From a virus, in IMG/VR virus record IMGVR_UViG_3300027852_000123, positions 1 to 33,576 of that record: a DNA stretch of 33,576 nucleotides. The stretch is one strand, 5' to 3'. Made by a program: the position numbers and the translations under genes. This document shows positions 5,900-22,044 of the stretch, in pieces. Within the stretch, counting starts at the first letter, position 1. The number at the start of each line of letters is the position of its first letter. The notes under the pieces were generated by a model. The model was given only the letters and a program-made list of their open reading frames with translations, searched no databases and was not told the origin of the DNA.

Positions 5900-6135
5900 G
5901 TAAACCTTTATACAGCTGTCTATTGGACATGAACCTTGCAGCGCATTTCGGCGGCGAAGATCGAGTCCGGCACACGGCTAAAGGCTGCATACGCCAAACA
6001 GATAAGTCTAATAAGAAGGCGCTCAAAAAAGTGATCAAATCCAGTAATCCGTGCCAACTGGTAGACGTAGCGTTCAGAGACATGTACCCTAAAGTCGTGG
6101 CCGCAGCGGATGAGGTTCGACAATGCAAGAATTAG
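5896..6135 (+). CDS. Hypothetical protein, 79 aa
   Basis: ATG 5896 overlaps the preceding stop; AAAGG lies upstream. The product contains YSCLLDMNLAAHFGGEDRVR, then a basic stretch (SNKKALKKVIKSS) and a final helix. It overlaps the HD-domain gene by 13 bases. No motif is recognised. Confidence 0.6.
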   Translation: MSKPLYSCLLDMNLAAHFGGEDRVRHTAKGCIRQTDKSNKKALKKVIKSSNPCQLVDVAFRDMYPKVVAAADEVRQCKN

Positions 6136-15379: not shown

Positions 15380-15408
15380 TGTACAAACAGTATACAGAGT
15401 AGTATAAT
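15380..15408 (+). promoter_or_regulatory. Sigma70-like promoter, TGTACA-N17-TATAAT
   Basis: TGTACA at 15380-15385 and TATAAT at 15403-15408 are separated by 17 bases, a few bases after the helicase stop codon. The -35 region reads GTGTACAAACAGTATACA, close to GTGTACAAAGTATACAC at 1645. It should drive the nucleotide-modification operon downstream. Confidence 0.8.
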
Positions 15409-15972: not shown

Positions 15973-16800
15973 ATGAGTAACGAAATTGCAGTACCCGATT
16001 ACCTGAAGGACCTAATTGACGAAGGCTCTTTACCCGGAGCAAAGTCTTTTGTAACATCAGGTGACTCACTTCCGCGCATCAGCCTTAAAGGCAGAAAGTT
16101 TCGATACAAAGAAGGCGGCGAAGAAGTTAAAACACAGAACGATACCATTGAGGTGGTGATCGTAGGCATTACGCCAGAAAGCGGCACGTCCAAAACATGG
16201 TACGAAAAAGGCTACGTACCTGGTGATACTGATCCACCCTCTTGCTCTTCACTGAACGGCGTTAACCCAGATGATTGGGTAGACAACAAACAAGCTACCA
16301 CGTGTGCTGGATGCCCTCAATCTAAGTGGGGCTCCGCAAAATCAATGAGCGGCGGTAAAGCTAAGGCTTGCAAAGAGTCTAAGATTCTTTACGTTATAGA
16401 CGCCGATGACGAAGAGAAGAAAGTCTGGATTCTTCAGGTCACCATTAGCTCGCTGAGGAATCTGACTGCTTACGGTCGATATTTGGAAGGTAACAACATG
16501 CCGTATGCTGCGTGCATAACCCAGATCATTATGGATGATGAGACTGACTTCCCCAAAGTCGACTTTCAGTACATAGGTGTATTGAAGAAAGACAACATCG
16601 GCGGATTTGTAGATATCGCAAAAGAACGCCCTTGGGATACTGGCGAATACCAGAATCTACTTAAATCCGACGCAAACGGTGAAACTGTTGCGGCCGAGGC
16701 GGAGCCAAAGCCCAAGGCCATGCCAAAACCGGATAAGTCTGTAGTACCAGAGTCTGATGCTGACAGCATCATTGAAAACTGGGGAGGCGACGAATCTTGA
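15973..16800 (+). CDS. Probable single-stranded DNA-binding protein, 275 aa
   Basis: ATG 15973 follows the preceding gene by 11 bases. The N-terminal part alternates strands (LPRISLKGRKFRYKEGGEEV), and the middle has a cysteine cluster (TTCAGCPQSKWGS ... ACKES) that may bind zinc. The C-terminus is a Pro/Lys/Ala linker ending in an acidic tail (DADSIIENWGGDES). An acidic C-terminal tail and a gene position between helicase and nucleotide genes are typical of phage ssDNA-binding proteins that recruit partners. The stop TGA overlaps the TTG start of the carbamoyltransferase. The fold is not proven. Confidence 0.65.
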   Translation: MSNEIAVPDYLKDLIDEGSLPGAKSFVTSGDSLPRISLKGRKFRYKEGGEEVKTQNDTIEVVIVGITPESGTSKTWYEKGYVPGDTDPPSCSSLNGVNPDDWVDNKQATTCAGCPQSKWGSAKSMSGGKAKACKESKILYVIDADDEEKKVWILQVTISSLRNLTAYGRYLEGNNMPYAACITQIIMDDETDFPKVDFQYIGVLKKDNIGGFVDIAKERPWDTGEYQNLLKSDANGETVAAEAEPKPKAMPKPDKSVVPESDADSIIENWGGDES

Positions 16801-18494
16801 ATGCATTGCTATTGTCCTTAGGACATGGCGCAAGCGCTTGCCTGGTCGATGCTTCGACTGGGCAGGTACGTGTCGCCTTCGAAAATGAGCGGCTAACTGG
16901 GGTTAAGAGTGATTCTCAATTTCCTATCGAAGCCATTAACAAATGCATGGAGTACGCTGTCGGAGAAGAGACAGTCATAATACTCGTTAGCCATTGGGGT
17001 ATAGGCCCTGAAGAGTTCATGGTTACGTCTAGCAAGTACTGGCGACCGAACATCATTAAGTCTGCATTCCCTGGCGTGCCAGTGGCGTACGTAAATGACG
17101 AATTTAGCCATCACGATGCGCATATGGAGTCCGCAGCGGTCTTCGCCGGAAAAGATTTTCTGGACGATAAGGTGTTAGGTATTGTCTGCGATGGATTCGG
17201 TACTCGTGGTGAGACTTTATCCGCGTACACGTTTAAAGACGGAGAGCGCAAGAATGTGTTCCGGCACTTCGGCTTCAAGGATTCTCTTGGTTTATTTTAC
17301 CAGTTTTCAACCTCGTTTCTGGGTTTGAAAGAGAACCAAGATGAGTACAAGCTTCTTGGGTACGAAGCCCATATATTGGACTGTGTGGATCTCATTGATT
17401 TTGCGGCGTTCACAGATATAATCGGGACTACAGCTAACAGCATCTTGAAGTCTATACAGTCAAAAAAGATAAATGAGGCTACAGACCCTTTAATAACCTT
17501 AGGTGCTCTGCCGCAATGCAAGTTGCAACACAGGATGATGCTACAAGATATGCTAGACAAGATTGAAGTTAGGCATATGTCAGGACACCAGCGTAGAATT
17601 GTGGTGGCGCACTTCACACAAAGGGTGGTGGAGCGAGTACTGGAAAAGTTCATCAGCGGCATGTCCGCAAAGCTAGACACTACCAAGTTGCTCGTGAGCG
17701 GCGGTGTGTTTATGAACGTAGCGCTGAATAACAGGTTGCTAGGGATTTGCGACTCTTTGTGCGTCATGCCTCTCTGTGGGGATCAAGGCGCTCCAATTGG
17801 TCTATACAACCAAGTATTCGGTAACTTTGTGTGGCCAGATCATTTGTTTTGGGGAGATCGAGGCTGGCCTTGGCATGAAGACGGTGACGTAGCTCGCCAC
17901 TTGGCTGCCGGTGATACTAACGTCCAAAGTATCAGCCAGACTGACCTCAATGCCGTGTTAATAGCTGAGAGGATCAACGCCGGCCAGATAGTAAACTTGG
18001 TAGGCAGCGCTATGGAGTTCGGATCAAGAGCTCTAGGTAACACATCGTCCTTGATGTTGCCCACAAAAGAAAACGTGGACAAGATCAATAGCGCCAATAA
18101 CCGCGCATCTATCATGCCATGCGCACCAGTAGTACGAGACCAAGATGTGCATAAATTCTTTAATCTTGAGCAGCTCGGCAAGGTACACAAGTCACTAGAG
18201 TACATGATATGCACAATTGACTACCTGGACGGAGAGGGTGAAAAGTGCCTAGGCGCAGCTCACAGCAAGCCATTTGAAAGCCACAACTATACAGGTCGGG
18301 TGCAGATTCTGAAAGAAGAAACTCACCCATTTCTATACCGGGTTCTAGGCTTGGTTGAAGGCAACATGGTAGTCAACACCAGCTTTAATTATCACGGTCA
18401 GCCTATCTGTTACAACAAGTTTGTTGACGTAGATAGGTTGCAAAACCAAGAAGACCCGAACGCCACATCCACGTTCTTACTGGAGCCAAACTGA
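16797..18494 (+). CDS. NodU/TobZ-family O-carbamoyltransferase, probably acting on 5-hydroxymethylcytosine
   Basis: This 565-residue protein has the two-domain layout of the NodU/CmcH/TobZ carbamoyltransferases. These enzymes make carbamoyl-adenylate from carbamoyl phosphate and ATP, then transfer the carbamoyl group to a hydroxyl. The N-terminal Kae1-like domain shows SLGHGASACLVD and SHHDAHMESAA (His 105, His 106, His 109; metal binding), then VSGGVFMNVALN. The C-terminal part shows AMEFGSRALGNTSSLMLP near residues 405-422, MPCAPVVRD and MVVNTSFN. The usual PRALGNRS is here SRALGNTS. The start is TTG 16797 with GGGGAGG upstream, overlapping the preceding stop. Next to a dCMP-hydroxymethylase-like gene, the likely substrate is hydroxymethylcytosine in DNA, as reported for environmental phage homologues. 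A hydroxymethyluracil substrate is the main alternative. Confidence 0.88.
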   Translation: MNALLLSLGHGASACLVDASTGQVRVAFENERLTGVKSDSQFPIEAINKCMEYAVGEETVIILVSHWGIGPEEFMVTSSKYWRPNIIKSAFPGVPVAYVNDEFSHHDAHMESAAVFAGKDFLDDKVLGIVCDGFGTRGETLSAYTFKDGERKNVFRHFGFKDSLGLFYQFSTSFLGLKENQDEYKLLGYEAHILDCVDLIDFAAFTDIIGTTANSILKSIQSKKINEATDPLITLGALPQCKLQHRMMLQDMLDKIEVRHMSGHQRRIVVAHFTQRVVERVLEKFISGMSAKLDTTKLLVSGGVFMNVALNNRLLGICDSLCVMPLCGDQGAPIGLYNQVFGNFVWPDHLFWGDRGWPWHEDGDVARHLAAGDTNVQSISQTDLNAVLIAERINAGQIVNLVGSAMEFGSRALGNTSSLMLPTKENVDKINSANNRASIMPCAPVVRDQDVHKFFNLEQLGKVHKSLEYMICTIDYLDGEGEKCLGAAHSKPFESHNYTGRVQILKEETHPFLYRVLGLVEGNMVVNTSFNYHGQPICYNKFVDVDRLQNQEDPNATSTFLLEPN

Positions 18495-18495
18495 T

Positions 18496-18930
18496 ATGAG
18501 CACTAATAGCACAGAAGCGCTATCTGTCAATTTCAACAAAAAAGTACTAGGCATTGATCCTAGAATCCCTAAACTGCAAAAGAAGGACGAATTCAAATTA
18601 AGCGTGGTACAACTCAAAGAAGAGATTCAAGAGTTTGAAGACGCGTACGAAGATGGTAACTTGGTTGAATGCGTAGACGCCATGATGGACTTGAAAGTGT
18701 TCGCCGATGGCGTGCTGTACAAGATGGGCCTAACTCCAGAAGATATGTTTGAATGCGCCGAAGCCATAAACACAGCCAACATGGCTAAAAAGGCTGGAGT
18801 AAAGGCCACAAGAGTTGTTACGGAAGGAGATGATGCTCCGGTCGATGCCAACAAGCCAGAAGGCTGGGTCGGACCGGAGGCAGCTATTGCACTTGTCTTG
18901 GCAAGAAGGGTAGAAAAATGCCGATCGTAA
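18496..18930 (+). CDS. MazG-like nucleotide pyrophosphohydrolase, 144 aa
   Basis: The segment LKEEIQEFEDAYEDGNLVEC followed by VDAMMDLKVFADGVLYKMGL carries the EExxE...E..D acidic pattern of all-alpha NTP pyrophosphohydrolases (MazG/HisE type), which convert NTPs or dNTPs to NMPs and pyrophosphate. The gene begins two bases after the carbamoyltransferase stop and overlaps the kinase gene. In this operon a plausible job is removal of unmodified dCTP or dUTP, as T4 does with a different enzyme; a (p)ppGpp- or NTP-pool role is also possible. The C-terminal 45 residues are extra to the catalytic core. Confidence 0.78.
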   Translation: MSTNSTEALSVNFNKKVLGIDPRIPKLQKKDEFKLSVVQLKEEIQEFEDAYEDGNLVECVDAMMDLKVFADGVLYKMGLTPEDMFECAEAINTANMAKKAGVKATRVVTEGDDAPVDANKPEGWVGPEAAIALVLARRVEKCRS

Positions 18931-19493
18931 TAGAAGGACCGGATAACGCCGGCAAATCCAGTTTGGCTAACGACATAGCTACAAGACTAGGAGGGCTGGT
19001 TATACACGCTGGCCCTCCAGTCAGTGACTATAGTAAAATGGCTAAGGACATAGCTCAAATGGACTTGGACTTGGCTAATCCAGAACACCGCAATGACGTG
19101 TTTGACAGAGCTGCGTGTATAAGTGAGAGCGTGTACCAGAATCACTGCGGCGCTGATGACCTCGCTCTGACAGGCGGCATCCAAAGATTGTTGGCGAGAG
19201 ATACCATCTTGATTTACTGCCGGCCGCCAAGCAGTACGCTGATGGACTTCTCTACTCACCTGACCAAGGCGTATGATACTGAAGAGACTATGCAAAAAAT
19301 AGTCGATAACGCGCACTTGTACATTGAGCGATACGATGAAGTATTCAGCAAGATACCGCACATCAACTTTAGCTGGATAGACGCTGTAGACAATAAAAAC
19401 TGGTATAACAGCTTCATAAACGCCACTGTCTCGTATACGCGCGATATGGCCGCATACAAAGCTGTAACTGAGGGCTTCCTAAATGTCAGATGA
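18918..19493 (+). CDS. Deoxynucleoside monophosphate kinase (thymidylate-kinase-like), 191 aa
   Basis: ATG 18918 overlaps the previous gene by 13 bases. The N-terminus MPIVIEGPDNAGKSSLANDI is a P-loop with Lys 13 and the GPDNAGKS form found in phage dNMP kinases related to thymidylate kinase. FDRAACISESVY follows as the nucleotide-binding segment, and DTILIYCRPPSSTLMD is a later strand. The size is right for a single-domain kinase. Because a hydroxymethylase follows, the inferred substrate is hydroxymethyl-dCMP, which host kinases handle poorly. dTMP or general dNMP activity cannot be excluded. Confidence 0.85.
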   Translation: MPIVIEGPDNAGKSSLANDIATRLGGLVIHAGPPVSDYSKMAKDIAQMDLDLANPEHRNDVFDRAACISESVYQNHCGADDLALTGGIQRLLARDTILIYCRPPSSTLMDFSTHLTKAYDTEETMQKIVDNAHLYIERYDEVFSKIPHINFSWIDAVDNKNWYNSFINATVSYTRDMAAYKAVTEGFLNVR

Positions 19494-20331
19494 TATGAAT
19501 AAAGCTTGGCTAGCCAAGACAAGAGAAGTGCTAGAAGACGGCATCAGCCAAGACGTCAGAGGCACCAGGTCTGTGGAGCTTATCAACTCTACCATCTCAG
19601 TAGATATGACTAAGCCTATACTGACCGTTAAAGACAGGGATCTTGGCTATAGATTCATGTTTGCCGAAGCGGAGTGGATACTGAACGGTAAGAACGATGT
19701 AGCGTCCATCGAACCTTACAGTCCTATCATCAAGAACTTTTCGGATGACGGAATATGGTTTCAAGGTGCGTATGGCCCCAAACTGGTCGATCAGCTATCG
19801 TACGTGGTGGATTCGTTGACGTCAGACCTGGGTACGCGACAAGCTGTTGCCACAATATGGAGCAGAAACCCAAGAGCCAGCAAAGACCATAGTTGTACTG
19901 TCAGTATCCAATGGTTAATCAGACATGGTAAACTGCACTGCATAGATACCATGCGTAGCAGCGATATCTGGCTTGGCGTTCCGTACGACGTGTTCAACTT
20001 TTCTATGTACTCAGCATACATCGCGCTTGTACTAAGAAGTAAAGGTGTTGACGTTGATCTAGGGACTCTGCACTTAAATGCCGGCAGTCAGCACTTGTAC
20101 AGTAACAACTTTGTTGCTGCAGCCAATATAGCCGACAGACTGCCGAAAGAGCCATCAGTTAAGGCGTTTGACTACGCACCATTTAGCTTGGATGGCTTTA
20201 GCCGGCCCTCTGATTTGGTCGACTACCTCGGTAGGGCCAAAGATATAGTAATAGAGCCGTCTGAGTGGCTATATTCGTCAATAGACGACATATCCAAAGG
20301 CAAAAGAGCTGAGGGCTGGTACGATCAATGA
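19483..20331 (+). CDS. dCMP hydroxymethylase (thymidylate-synthase fold), 282 aa
   Basis: The protein follows the thymidylate synthase core. DHSCTVSIQWLIRHGKLHC holds the nucleophile Cys 138, MRSSDIWLGVPYDVFNF holds the phosphate-binding Arg 158 and Asp 161, and AGSQHLYSN holds His 204 and Tyr 206. The residue that is Asn in thymidylate synthase (Asn 177 in E. coli) and reads the uracil ring is Asp 169 here. Asp at this site marks dCMP hydroxymethylases such as T4 gp42. The expected reaction is dCMP plus methylene-tetrahydrofolate to 5-hydroxymethyl-dCMP. The start overlaps the kinase gene by 11 bases, and GAGG lies upstream. A dUMP-specific synthase or hydroxymethylase is less likely because of Asp 169. 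Confidence 0.85.
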   Translation: MSDDMNKAWLAKTREVLEDGISQDVRGTRSVELINSTISVDMTKPILTVKDRDLGYRFMFAEAEWILNGKNDVASIEPYSPIIKNFSDDGIWFQGAYGPKLVDQLSYVVDSLTSDLGTRQAVATIWSRNPRASKDHSCTVSIQWLIRHGKLHCIDTMRSSDIWLGVPYDVFNFSMYSAYIALVLRSKGVDVDLGTLHLNAGSQHLYSNNFVAAANIADRLPKEPSVKAFDYAPFSLDGFSRPSDLVDYLGRAKDIVIEPSEWLYSSIDDISKGKRAEGWYDQ

Positions 20332-20994: not shown

Positions 20995-22044
20995 ATGACA
21001 ACTTTGTACAAGAAGCACAAAAAATCTATAGGTGTATGGCACATTAACCCGATACCTAGCGGCCTATTAGTGCAACACTCAACCACACTAAATGGTAAGC
21101 TAGTTGTGCACAGAGAGGTTATATCTGAGGGCAAGCAAGGTAGATCGCTATCTGATCAGACCCAGCACAGAATACAGTCCAGAATCAACAAACAGCTAGA
21201 CAAAGGCTATGTGACCACTTTAGAGCTTGCCAGGAATGGACCTACTAATACCATGGGTCTTAAGCTGCCTATGCTGGCACAGCAGTTCAAAAAAGTCAGA
21301 AACAAAGGGCAGTTCGTGTGCTACCAACCTAAGTTGGACGGGCATAGGTGTTTGGTAACAAAGCAGGACGGCAAAGTAATAGCGTACACCCGGCAAGGCA
21401 AGCACATTACAACTATCGAGCATATTACTGTTGGACTTATGGGTACACTGCCGGAAGGCATTACCATAGATGGCGAGCTGTACATACACGGTACGCCTCT
21501 ACAAAACATAGGCTCTTTGATAAAGAAGCAACAACCTGGCACTGAGTTACTAGAGCTATGGGTATACGACCTAATCGGCGATGCGCCATTCAAGAATCGG
21601 TATGAGAAGTTGTCGCGCATAATTAAGGGTTTGCCGTCTATCAAGTTGACTCCTACCAGTTTTAAGTTGGTCGATGAGGTAGCGCCTTTACTGACAAAAA
21701 TGATCGACAGAGGGTACGAAGGATTAATAATTAGGCTAAGCGCAAAAGGTTACGAGGACGGCAGACGATCTAATTCACTAGTGAAGGTCAAAAGGTTTTA
21801 CGATAACGAGTTTGTTGTTACAGACGTTATACAATCAAAGGAGGGATGGGGTATTTTGTGTTGCGAAACAACCAACGGACTGCCGTTCAAAGTGAGCGCA
21901 CCGGGTACTCACAAAGAGAAAACAGGCATCTTAGACAACAAACAAGACTACATAGGAAAAATGGTTACGGTGGAGTTTAGCATGCTGACCAACAACGGTA
22001 TACCGTTTCACCCTGTGGCACTAAGATTCAGAGAGGACATTTAA
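20995..22044 (+). CDS. ATP-dependent DNA ligase with an N-terminal WGR-like domain, 349 aa
   Basis: The catalytic motif is QPKLDGHR with Lys 113 as the adenylated lysine. Motif III is EGITIDGELY, motif IV GYEGLIIR and motif V SLVKVKRF; the OB-fold end is GKMVTVEFSML. This is a compact ATP-dependent nucleotidyltransferase ligase that seals nicks. Residues 10-72 (SIGVWHINPIPSGLLVQHS onward, with GKQGRSLSDQT) resemble a WGR domain, a DNA-end-sensing module best known from PARP enzymes, placed before the adenylation domain. ATG 20995 has CGGAG upstream. It is one of three genes between the 70-bp elements. Confidence 0.9.
   Translation: MTTLYKKHKKSIGVWHINPIPSGLLVQHSTTLNGKLVVHREVISEGKQGRSLSDQTQHRIQSRINKQLDKGYVTTLELARNGPTNTMGLKLPMLAQQFKKVRNKGQFVCYQPKLDGHRCLVTKQDGKVIAYTRQGKHITTIEHITVGLMGTLPEGITIDGELYIHGTPLQNIGSLIKKQQPGTELLELWVYDLIGDAPFKNRYEKLSRIIKGLPSIKLTPTSFKLVDEVAPLLTKMIDRGYEGLIIRLSAKGYEDGRRSNSLVKVKRFYDNEFVVTDVIQSKEGWGILCCETTNGLPFKVSAPGTHKEKTGILDNKQDYIGKMVTVEFSMLTNNGIPFHPVALRFREDI

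What the first reader, a model, noticed from the sequence alone, without database searches (positions are those of the whole stretch)
16797..20331. Operon for carbamoylated hydroxymethylcytosine in phage DNA
Four overlapping genes give a complete route: a NodU/TobZ carbamoyltransferase, a MazG-like pyrophosphohydrolase, a dNMP kinase and a dCMP-hydroxymethylase-like enzyme, transcribed from the promoter at 15380. Known: phage dCMP hydroxymethylases make hmC, and carbamoyltransferases from environmental phages have been shown to convert hmC to 5-carbamoyloxymethylcytosine. Inferred: this phage carries that modification and uses it against restriction. The gene set here also includes a MazG-like enzyme whose role in clearing unmodified dCTP is untested.
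Basis: partly seen in the sequence, partly recalled or inferred. Interest (0 to 1): 0.85.

Follow-up and report, generated by a model that had tools for sequence, protein, structure and literature searches.

The report
Phage operon for carbamoylated DNA cytosine
An uncultured phage carries a gene cluster that most likely replaces cytosine in its DNA with hydroxymethylcytosine and then caps it with a carbamoyl group, probably as armour against restriction enzymes; the enzyme and this gene combination were already described in 2021, so it is a well-supported new member of a known kind.

Summary
The four genes are real and in tight same-strand order. The carbamoyltransferase (CT) falls in one clade (support 100/100) with the enzyme shown biochemically to make 5-carbamoyloxymethylcytosine (Yang et al. 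2021, PMC8670742), apart from cyanophage and antibiotic-pathway CTs. The thymidylate-synthase-fold enzyme has the dCMP signature (Cys146, Thr147, Asp177) of T4 gp42. Of 44 CT-clade loci, 41 have an Asp177 homologue within 1.7 kb; the other three end at a contig edge inside or beside the CT gene. The same gene order occurs in cultured phages Xp15, HHU4 and Effie. The 2021 paper already reported this domain combination: a new member of a known kind.

Corrections: the promoter at 15380 is no better than chance; CT and MazG do not overlap; the route still needs a nucleoside-diphosphate kinase, which the window lacks.

Added: the window's hydroxymethylase nests in a family (80 of 80 relatives Asp177) without CT nearby. 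51 of 80 loci carry a SAM methyltransferase, usually in the CT slot; two carry a T4-type alpha-glucosyltransferase. A cultured methyltransferase-type phage, AXL3, has DNA resisting 35 of 37 restriction enzymes, cut only at A/T-only sites (PMC7504290). No modified base has been measured in any CT phage examined here.

The parts
16797..18494 (+). NodU/TobZ-family O-carbamoyltransferase of the 5-hydroxymethylcytosine carbamoyltransferase clade (565 aa, TTG start)
   Evidence: Pfam N and C domains, phrog_1601, clade with the characterised enzyme 100/100 and diagnostic residues, 35% identity
18496..18930 (+). MazG/PRA-PH-type (all-alpha) NTP pyrophosphohydrolase; proposed dCTP to dCMP
   Evidence: PF01503 1e-7; E42/E43/E46 ... 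D61/D65 invariant in 8 relatives; substrate is inference
18918..19493 (+). P-loop dNMP kinase-like protein; proposed 5hm-dCMP kinase
   Evidence: phrog_761; P-loop G7/G12/K13 invariant in 16 relatives; model pLDDT 80 matches YorR, deoxynucleoside kinases and dTMP kinases; substrate is inference
19483..20331 (+). dCMP hydroxymethylase (thymidylate-synthase fold; E58, C146, T147, D177 in E. coli TS numbering)
   Evidence: PF00303, CMP hydroxymethylase best PDB sequence match, residues
20485..20982 (+). dCMP deaminase, part of the conserved block
   Evidence: PF00383 4e-15, phrog_174 9e-31; conserved position in relatives
20995..22044 (+). ATP-dependent DNA ligase, conserved downstream neighbour
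   Evidence: PF01068 4e-21; same order in Xp15, HHU4, Effie, L005, L007
15973..16800 (+). Cys-containing protein of unknown function (phrog_27714), directly upstream and co-conserved with this CT; possibly a ssDNA-binding replication protein
   Evidence: conserved next to CT in 7 phages with C91, C111, C114, C133 invariant; model too poor (pLDDT 54) to assign a fold
   Evidence: 16 sites found, 14.4 expected

Best explanation
This is a cytosine-hypermodification operon of a double-stranded DNA phage with a family A polymerase. The MazG-type enzyme is proposed to hydrolyse dCTP to dCMP (inferred), which keeps plain C out of the DNA and supplies substrate. The Asp177 thymidylate-synthase-fold enzyme converts dCMP with methylene-THF to 5-hydroxymethyl-dCMP (predicted from residues and kin). 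The P-loop kinase makes the diphosphate (inferred) and a host NDK the triphosphate (inferred; none in the window). The phage polymerase incorporates 5hmC, and the CT transfers carbamoyl from carbamoyl phosphate via carbamoyl-adenylate to the 5-hydroxymethyl group, on DNA or already on 5hm-dCTP, giving 5-carbamoyloxymethylcytosine. The reaction is shown for the 35%-identical homologue, not for this protein. The dCMP deaminase diverts surplus dCMP to dUMP for dTMP. The likely benefit is escape from restriction (inferred).
For: CT clade with the characterised enzyme 100/100, every clade member with Thr where other CTs have Arg (TobZ R423 position) and a GDQG motif; 35% identity, E 2e-85. TS-fold residues E58/C146/T147/D177 as in T4 gp42, and no 'APVAI'-type C-terminal cap that canonical TS has. 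All CT-adjacent TS homologues are Asp177; 41 of 44 CT loci have one within 1.7 kb and the 3 without are truncated at the CT gene. HHU4 and Effie carry a separate canonical C146-H147-N177 TS about 11 kb away, and Xp15, L005 and L007 carry ThyX, so the operon copy is not needed for dTMP there. Relatives of the window's hydroxymethylase (80 of 80 Asp177) occur with T4-type alpha-glucosyltransferases in L087 and L094 (phrog_2888 2e-24), whose known substrate is 5hmC DNA. AXL3, with MazG-kinase-TS(D177, 44% identical to the window's)-deaminase, has DNA resistant to 35 of 37 restriction enzymes and cut only by two with A/T-only sites (PMC7504290). The 2021 study found the CT + TS + PRA-PH + dCMP deaminase association in DNA selected for cytosine modification.
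Against: No nucleoside analysis of this phage or of any cultured CT phage found here (only one paper on 5cmdC in the library). The window CT keeps Gly at the TobZ 421 position, where most clade members have Cys. Asp177 alone would also fit a dCMP methylase making 5mC. MazG and kinase substrates are unassigned. The AXL3 operon has a methyltransferase, not a CT, and its modified base is unknown.
Confidence: 0.85

Rival explanations
1. The TS-fold enzyme is a dCMP methylase (5-methyl-dCMP, as in phage XP12), and the CT acts on something else.
For: Asp177 in a TS scaffold alone gives 5-methyl-dCMP formation (cited in PMC8670742).
Against: The characterised CT does not act on 5mdCTP, and CT plus Asp177 TS are linked in 41 of 41 untruncated loci. 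The window enzyme lacks the canonical C-terminal cap. Its kin occur with alpha-glucosyltransferases that need 5hmC.
Confidence: 0.06
2. The TS-fold enzyme acts on dUMP (thymidylate synthase or 5hmU synthesis as in SPO1) and the operon serves thymidine metabolism.
For: dCMP deaminase and a TMK-like kinase are neighbours; the window's TS groups nearer to SPO1 gp29 and TS than to T4 gp42 (91/73, 93/88); no ThyX in the window.
Against: Both top dUMP/dCMP-discriminating positions, 177 and 147, are of the dCMP type in the window and in all 80 closest relatives (one has Ser147). The characterised CT does not act on 5hmdUTP.
Confidence: 0.05
3. The CT decorates a glycan or small molecule (nodulation-factor or antibiotic-like), as cyanophage CTs next to sugar genes probably do.
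For: The family is mostly of that kind; phage CTs of P-SSM2, S-CAM3 and XacN1 lie by sugar or glycosyltransferase genes.
Against: Those CTs fall outside the clade with 100/100 support and keep Arg at the 423 position; the window CT has no sugar gene nearby.
Confidence: 0.03

Closest known systems
5-hydroxymethylcytosine carbamoyltransferase of Yang et al. 2021 (eLife 10:e70021, PMC8670742) and its modified-DNA contigs
   Same: CT clade, companion Asp177 TS, PRA-PH pyrophosphohydrolase and dCMP deaminase; the paper's own top co-occurring domains
   Different: Only 35% identical CT; the window's hydroxymethylase belongs to a different subfamily (closest to CT-less phages); the kinase and the conserved upstream gene are not mentioned in the passages read
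Xanthomonas phage Xp15 (NC_007024) gp40-gp32
   Same: Same order: phrog_27714-like protein, CT, MazG, kinase, TS(D177), deaminase, ligase; cultured
   Different: Hydroxymethylase only about 22% identical in alignment; annotated as TS; also has ThyX; no base analysis found in the papers searched
Acinetobacter phages HHU4 and Effie
   Same: Same gene order with an Asp177 TS
   Different: Carry an additional canonical TS about 11 kb away
T4 gp42 / alpha- and beta-glucosyltransferase / gp56 / gp1 pathway
   Same: Logic: dCTP removal, dCMP hydroxymethylation, kinase, post-synthetic capping of 5hmC; same residues 146/147/177
   Different: Carbamoyl instead of glucose cap; MazG-type enzyme in the position of gp56; hydroxymethylase distant from gp42
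Stenotrophomonas phage AXL3 gp27-gp31 and MW202510.1
   Same: MazG-kinase-TS(D177)-deaminase cassette, 44% identical TS; AXL3 DNA resists G/C-containing restriction sites (PMC7504290)
   Different: SAM methyltransferase in the CT slot; modified base unknown

Membership tests
5hmC carbamoyltransferase clade | Carbam_trans_N + Carbam_trans_C over the full length | tested here: met
5hmC carbamoyltransferase clade | Monophyletic with the characterised enzyme, excluding other CTs | tested here: met
   42 rows against 9 outgroup rows, 100/100; the reference enzyme lies inside the clade. Two outgroup rows were partial sequences read from PDB alignments
5hmC carbamoyltransferase clade | Residues at TobZ W408, G421, R423 of the modified-DNA type (Yang et al.) | tested here: inconclusive
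   Leu, Gly, Thr; 2 of 3 differ from TobZ-type. Positions were mapped through the GdmN motif, because the TobZ sequence itself was not available
5hmC carbamoyltransferase clade | HHxxH and GGxxxN motifs of the family | tested here: met
   SHHDAH, GGVFMN present
5hmC carbamoyltransferase clade | Carbamoylates 5hmC in DNA or 5hm-dCTP | not testable with these tools
   needs enzyme assay
dCMP hydroxymethylase | TS fold with catalytic Cys146 and Glu58 | tested here: met
dCMP hydroxymethylase | Asp177 (dCMP rather than dUMP) and non-His147 | tested here: met
   Thr147, Asp177 as in T4 gp42
dCMP hydroxymethylase | Hydroxymethyl, not methyl, product | not testable with these tools
   indirect only: no APVAI-type C-terminal cap; kin with alpha-glucosyltransferase
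MazG/all-alpha NTP pyrophosphohydrolase as dCTPase | Metal-binding acidic motif | tested here: met
   E42, E43, E46, D61, D65 invariant in 8
MazG/all-alpha NTP pyrophosphohydrolase as dCTPase | dCTP preference | not testable with these tools
   inference from context
dNMP kinase | P-loop kinase fold | tested here: met
   matches YorR 9e-6, deoxyadenosine kinase 4.5e-4, dTMP kinase 8e-4
dNMP kinase | Acts on 5hm-dCMP | not testable with these tools
   inference

The most novel reading that the evidence does not exclude
The dCTPase-kinase-dCMP hydroxymethylase-deaminase cassette is a common chassis in phages, in which one slot next to MazG holds an exchangeable capping enzyme: the carbamoyltransferase here and a SAM methyltransferase in most relatives, while a few relatives have an alpha-glucosyltransferase nearby. 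In methyltransferase phages such as AXL3 and MW202510 the product would be a hypermodified cytosine not yet described (for example an O-methylated 5hmC).
Probability: 0.3. Interest if true: 0.7.

Novelty: new member of a known kind. Interest (0 to 1): 0.45.

Why it matters
5-carbamoyloxymethylcytosine is known from an in vitro reaction with a metagenomic enzyme; in the papers searched no cultured phage has been shown to carry it. The conserved operon places the pathway in cultured isolates (Xanthomonas Xp15, Acinetobacter HHU4 and Effie, and CT plus Asp177 TS in Bacteroides BF503P1), so the base and its effect on restriction can be tested directly. The exchange of CT for a methyltransferase suggests further undescribed cytosine caps, with AXL3 as a phage whose restriction resistance is already measured.

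Tried and rejected
Promoter at 15380: match count is at chance. DNA-level relatives of the region: none in the phage collection by megablast. Upstream protein 15973-16800 as a ssDNA-binding protein, to link with the CT's reported ssDNA preference: the model is poor (pLDDT 54) and Foldseek gives no hit below E 0.001, only weak PrgE matches, so left as a guess. TET plus C5-methyltransferase route to 5hmC: no PF12851 or PF00145 match in the window; the TET control rang nowhere, so that absence is weak, and the record may be partial. XP12 genome as a dCMP methylase control: accession not held. A claim that Trp80 is replaced was dropped because the alignment there is ambiguous.

Full report
Observation. 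Six-frame ORFs and family searches confirm four same-strand genes at 16797-20331: CT, MazG/PRA-PH, P-loop kinase, TS-fold enzyme. They lie 1 nt apart (CT/MazG), overlap by 13 nt (MazG/kinase) and by 11 nt (kinase/TS). The CT uses a TTG start that overlaps the stop of the upstream gene. The window is a 33.6 kb virus record that may be a fragment, with a family A polymerase, a Prim-Pol/DUF5906 primase, a helicase, a ligase and tail genes.

The carbamoyltransferase. Yang et al. 2021 print the sequence of the characterised 5hmC carbamoyltransferase. The window CT is 35% identical over its whole length (E 2e-85). A maximum-likelihood tree of 51 CTs puts the window, the characterised enzyme, Xp15, HHU4, Effie, BF503P1 and IMG/VR homologues in one group with 100/100 support, apart from cyanophage, XacN1, GdmN and 7xb6 CTs. 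All members of the group have Thr at the position of TobZ Arg423 and Gly-Asp-Gln-Gly later on; the outgroup has Arg and other motifs. Position 421 is Gly in the window, HHU4, Effie, L007 and L040, but Cys in most others. The TobZ numbering was mapped through the GdmN motif, so it is an inference.

The hydroxymethylase. In E. coli TS numbering the enzyme has E58, C146, T147, D177. Positions 147 and 177 are the two that best separate TS enzymes of modified and unmodified DNA in Yang et al.. T4 gp42 has the same T147/D177; SPO1 gp29 (dUMP hydroxymethylase) has N147/N177; E. coli TS has H147/N177. The C-terminal APVAI-type tail of canonical TS is absent, which fits hydroxymethylation rather than methylation (my knowledge of TS mechanism, not tested here). 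The best PDB sequence match is CMP 5-hydroxymethylase.

Linkage. Of 44 CT-clade loci, 41 have an Asp177 TS homologue within 1.7 kb. The three without (L037, L041, L042) are cut at or beside the CT gene by a contig end. No CT-adjacent TS is of the Asn177 type; HHU4 and Effie carry a canonical TS separately. ThyX occurs in Xp15, L005 and L007. The full block (upstream protein, CT, pyrophosphohydrolase, kinase, hydroxymethylase, deaminase, and ligase where the contig allows) is shared by the window, Xp15, HHU4, Effie, L005, L006 and L007 at 35-44% identity to the window for the upstream protein. In L006 the MazG slot holds a much more divergent MazG-like protein (16% identity).

A wider family. 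The 80 closest IMG/VR relatives of the window's hydroxymethylase all have Asp177 (79 with Thr147, one with Ser147), and none has this CT within the 6 kb fetched. Twelve whole records were searched and have no CT C-terminal domain. The window's enzyme and that of CT phage L006 nest separately inside this family (a quick FastTree tree with moderate supports), so hydroxymethylase cassettes and CTs have probably been recombined more than once. In 51 of the 80 loci, and in MW202510 and AXL3, there is a SAM methyltransferase (Methyltransf_23), in most cases immediately upstream of MazG, the slot that the CT takes in the window. It is absent from all 44 CT loci. In L087 and L094 a T4-type alpha-glucosyltransferase lies downstream. 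Because T4 alpha-glucosyltransferase acts on 5hmC DNA, this supports a hydroxymethyl product for the family.

Independent experiment. AXL3 carries methyltransferase, MazG, kinase, TS (D177, 44% identical to the window's) and dCMP deaminase, and ThyX. Its authors report DNA resistant to 35 of 37 restriction enzymes, cut only by TasI and Tru1I, whose sites are A/T only (PMC7504290). They read the TS as part of dTMP synthesis; the residues found here suggest instead that it makes the modified cytosine. This supports the chassis, not the carbamoyl cap.

Other parts. The kinase model (pLDDT 80) resembles YorR, deoxynucleoside kinases and dTMP kinases. The MazG protein has the acidic motif. Their roles with 5hm-dCMP and dCTP are inferred. 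No NDK was found in the window, so a host enzyme is probably used. Whether carbamoylation happens on DNA or on the triphosphate is open: the characterised enzyme does both and prefers single-stranded DNA.

Verdict. The added value is the list of cultured carriers and the exchangeable capping slot.

Noticed in passing
L044:7372-8268; L138:7920-8744; 51 of L058-L137: A SAM methyltransferase (Methyltransf_23; L044's copy weakly UbiG-like) takes the CT slot next to MazG-kinase-Asp177 TS-deaminase and never co-occurs with this CT; possible enzyme for an undescribed hypermodified cytosine. AXL3 DNA is known to resist G/C-containing restriction sites.
   Followed up: partly
e.g. L012:9762-10418, L008:3131-3919, L004:14417-15223; about 23 CT loci: Many CT loci carry two Asp177 TS homologues, one lacking the catalytic Glu58 (Lys/Met/Ile/Leu instead) but keeping Cys146; could be a heteromeric partner or regulator. 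L024, L025, L029, L032 and L038 have a single TS with Gln58. Unexplained.
   Followed up: partly
window 6123-6653 (+): HD-domain protein resembling the N-terminal hydrolase domain of SpoT/RelA (HD_4 5e-14, TIGR00691 3e-18): perhaps a phage ppGpp or nucleotide hydrolase.
   Followed up: no
window 15973-16800 (+): Unknown Cys-containing protein (phrog_27714) co-conserved directly upstream of this CT in 7 phages; a replication ssDNA-binding protein is a guess.
   Followed up: partly
L087:8963-10159, L094:8965-10164: T4-type alpha-glucosyltransferase homologues downstream of an Asp177 hydroxymethylase and a DUF5906 primase-like protein.
   Followed up: partly
L006:9687-9989: The MazG slot of the CT operon is filled by a much more divergent MazG-like protein (16% identity to the window's), suggesting replacement with retained function.
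   Followed up: no
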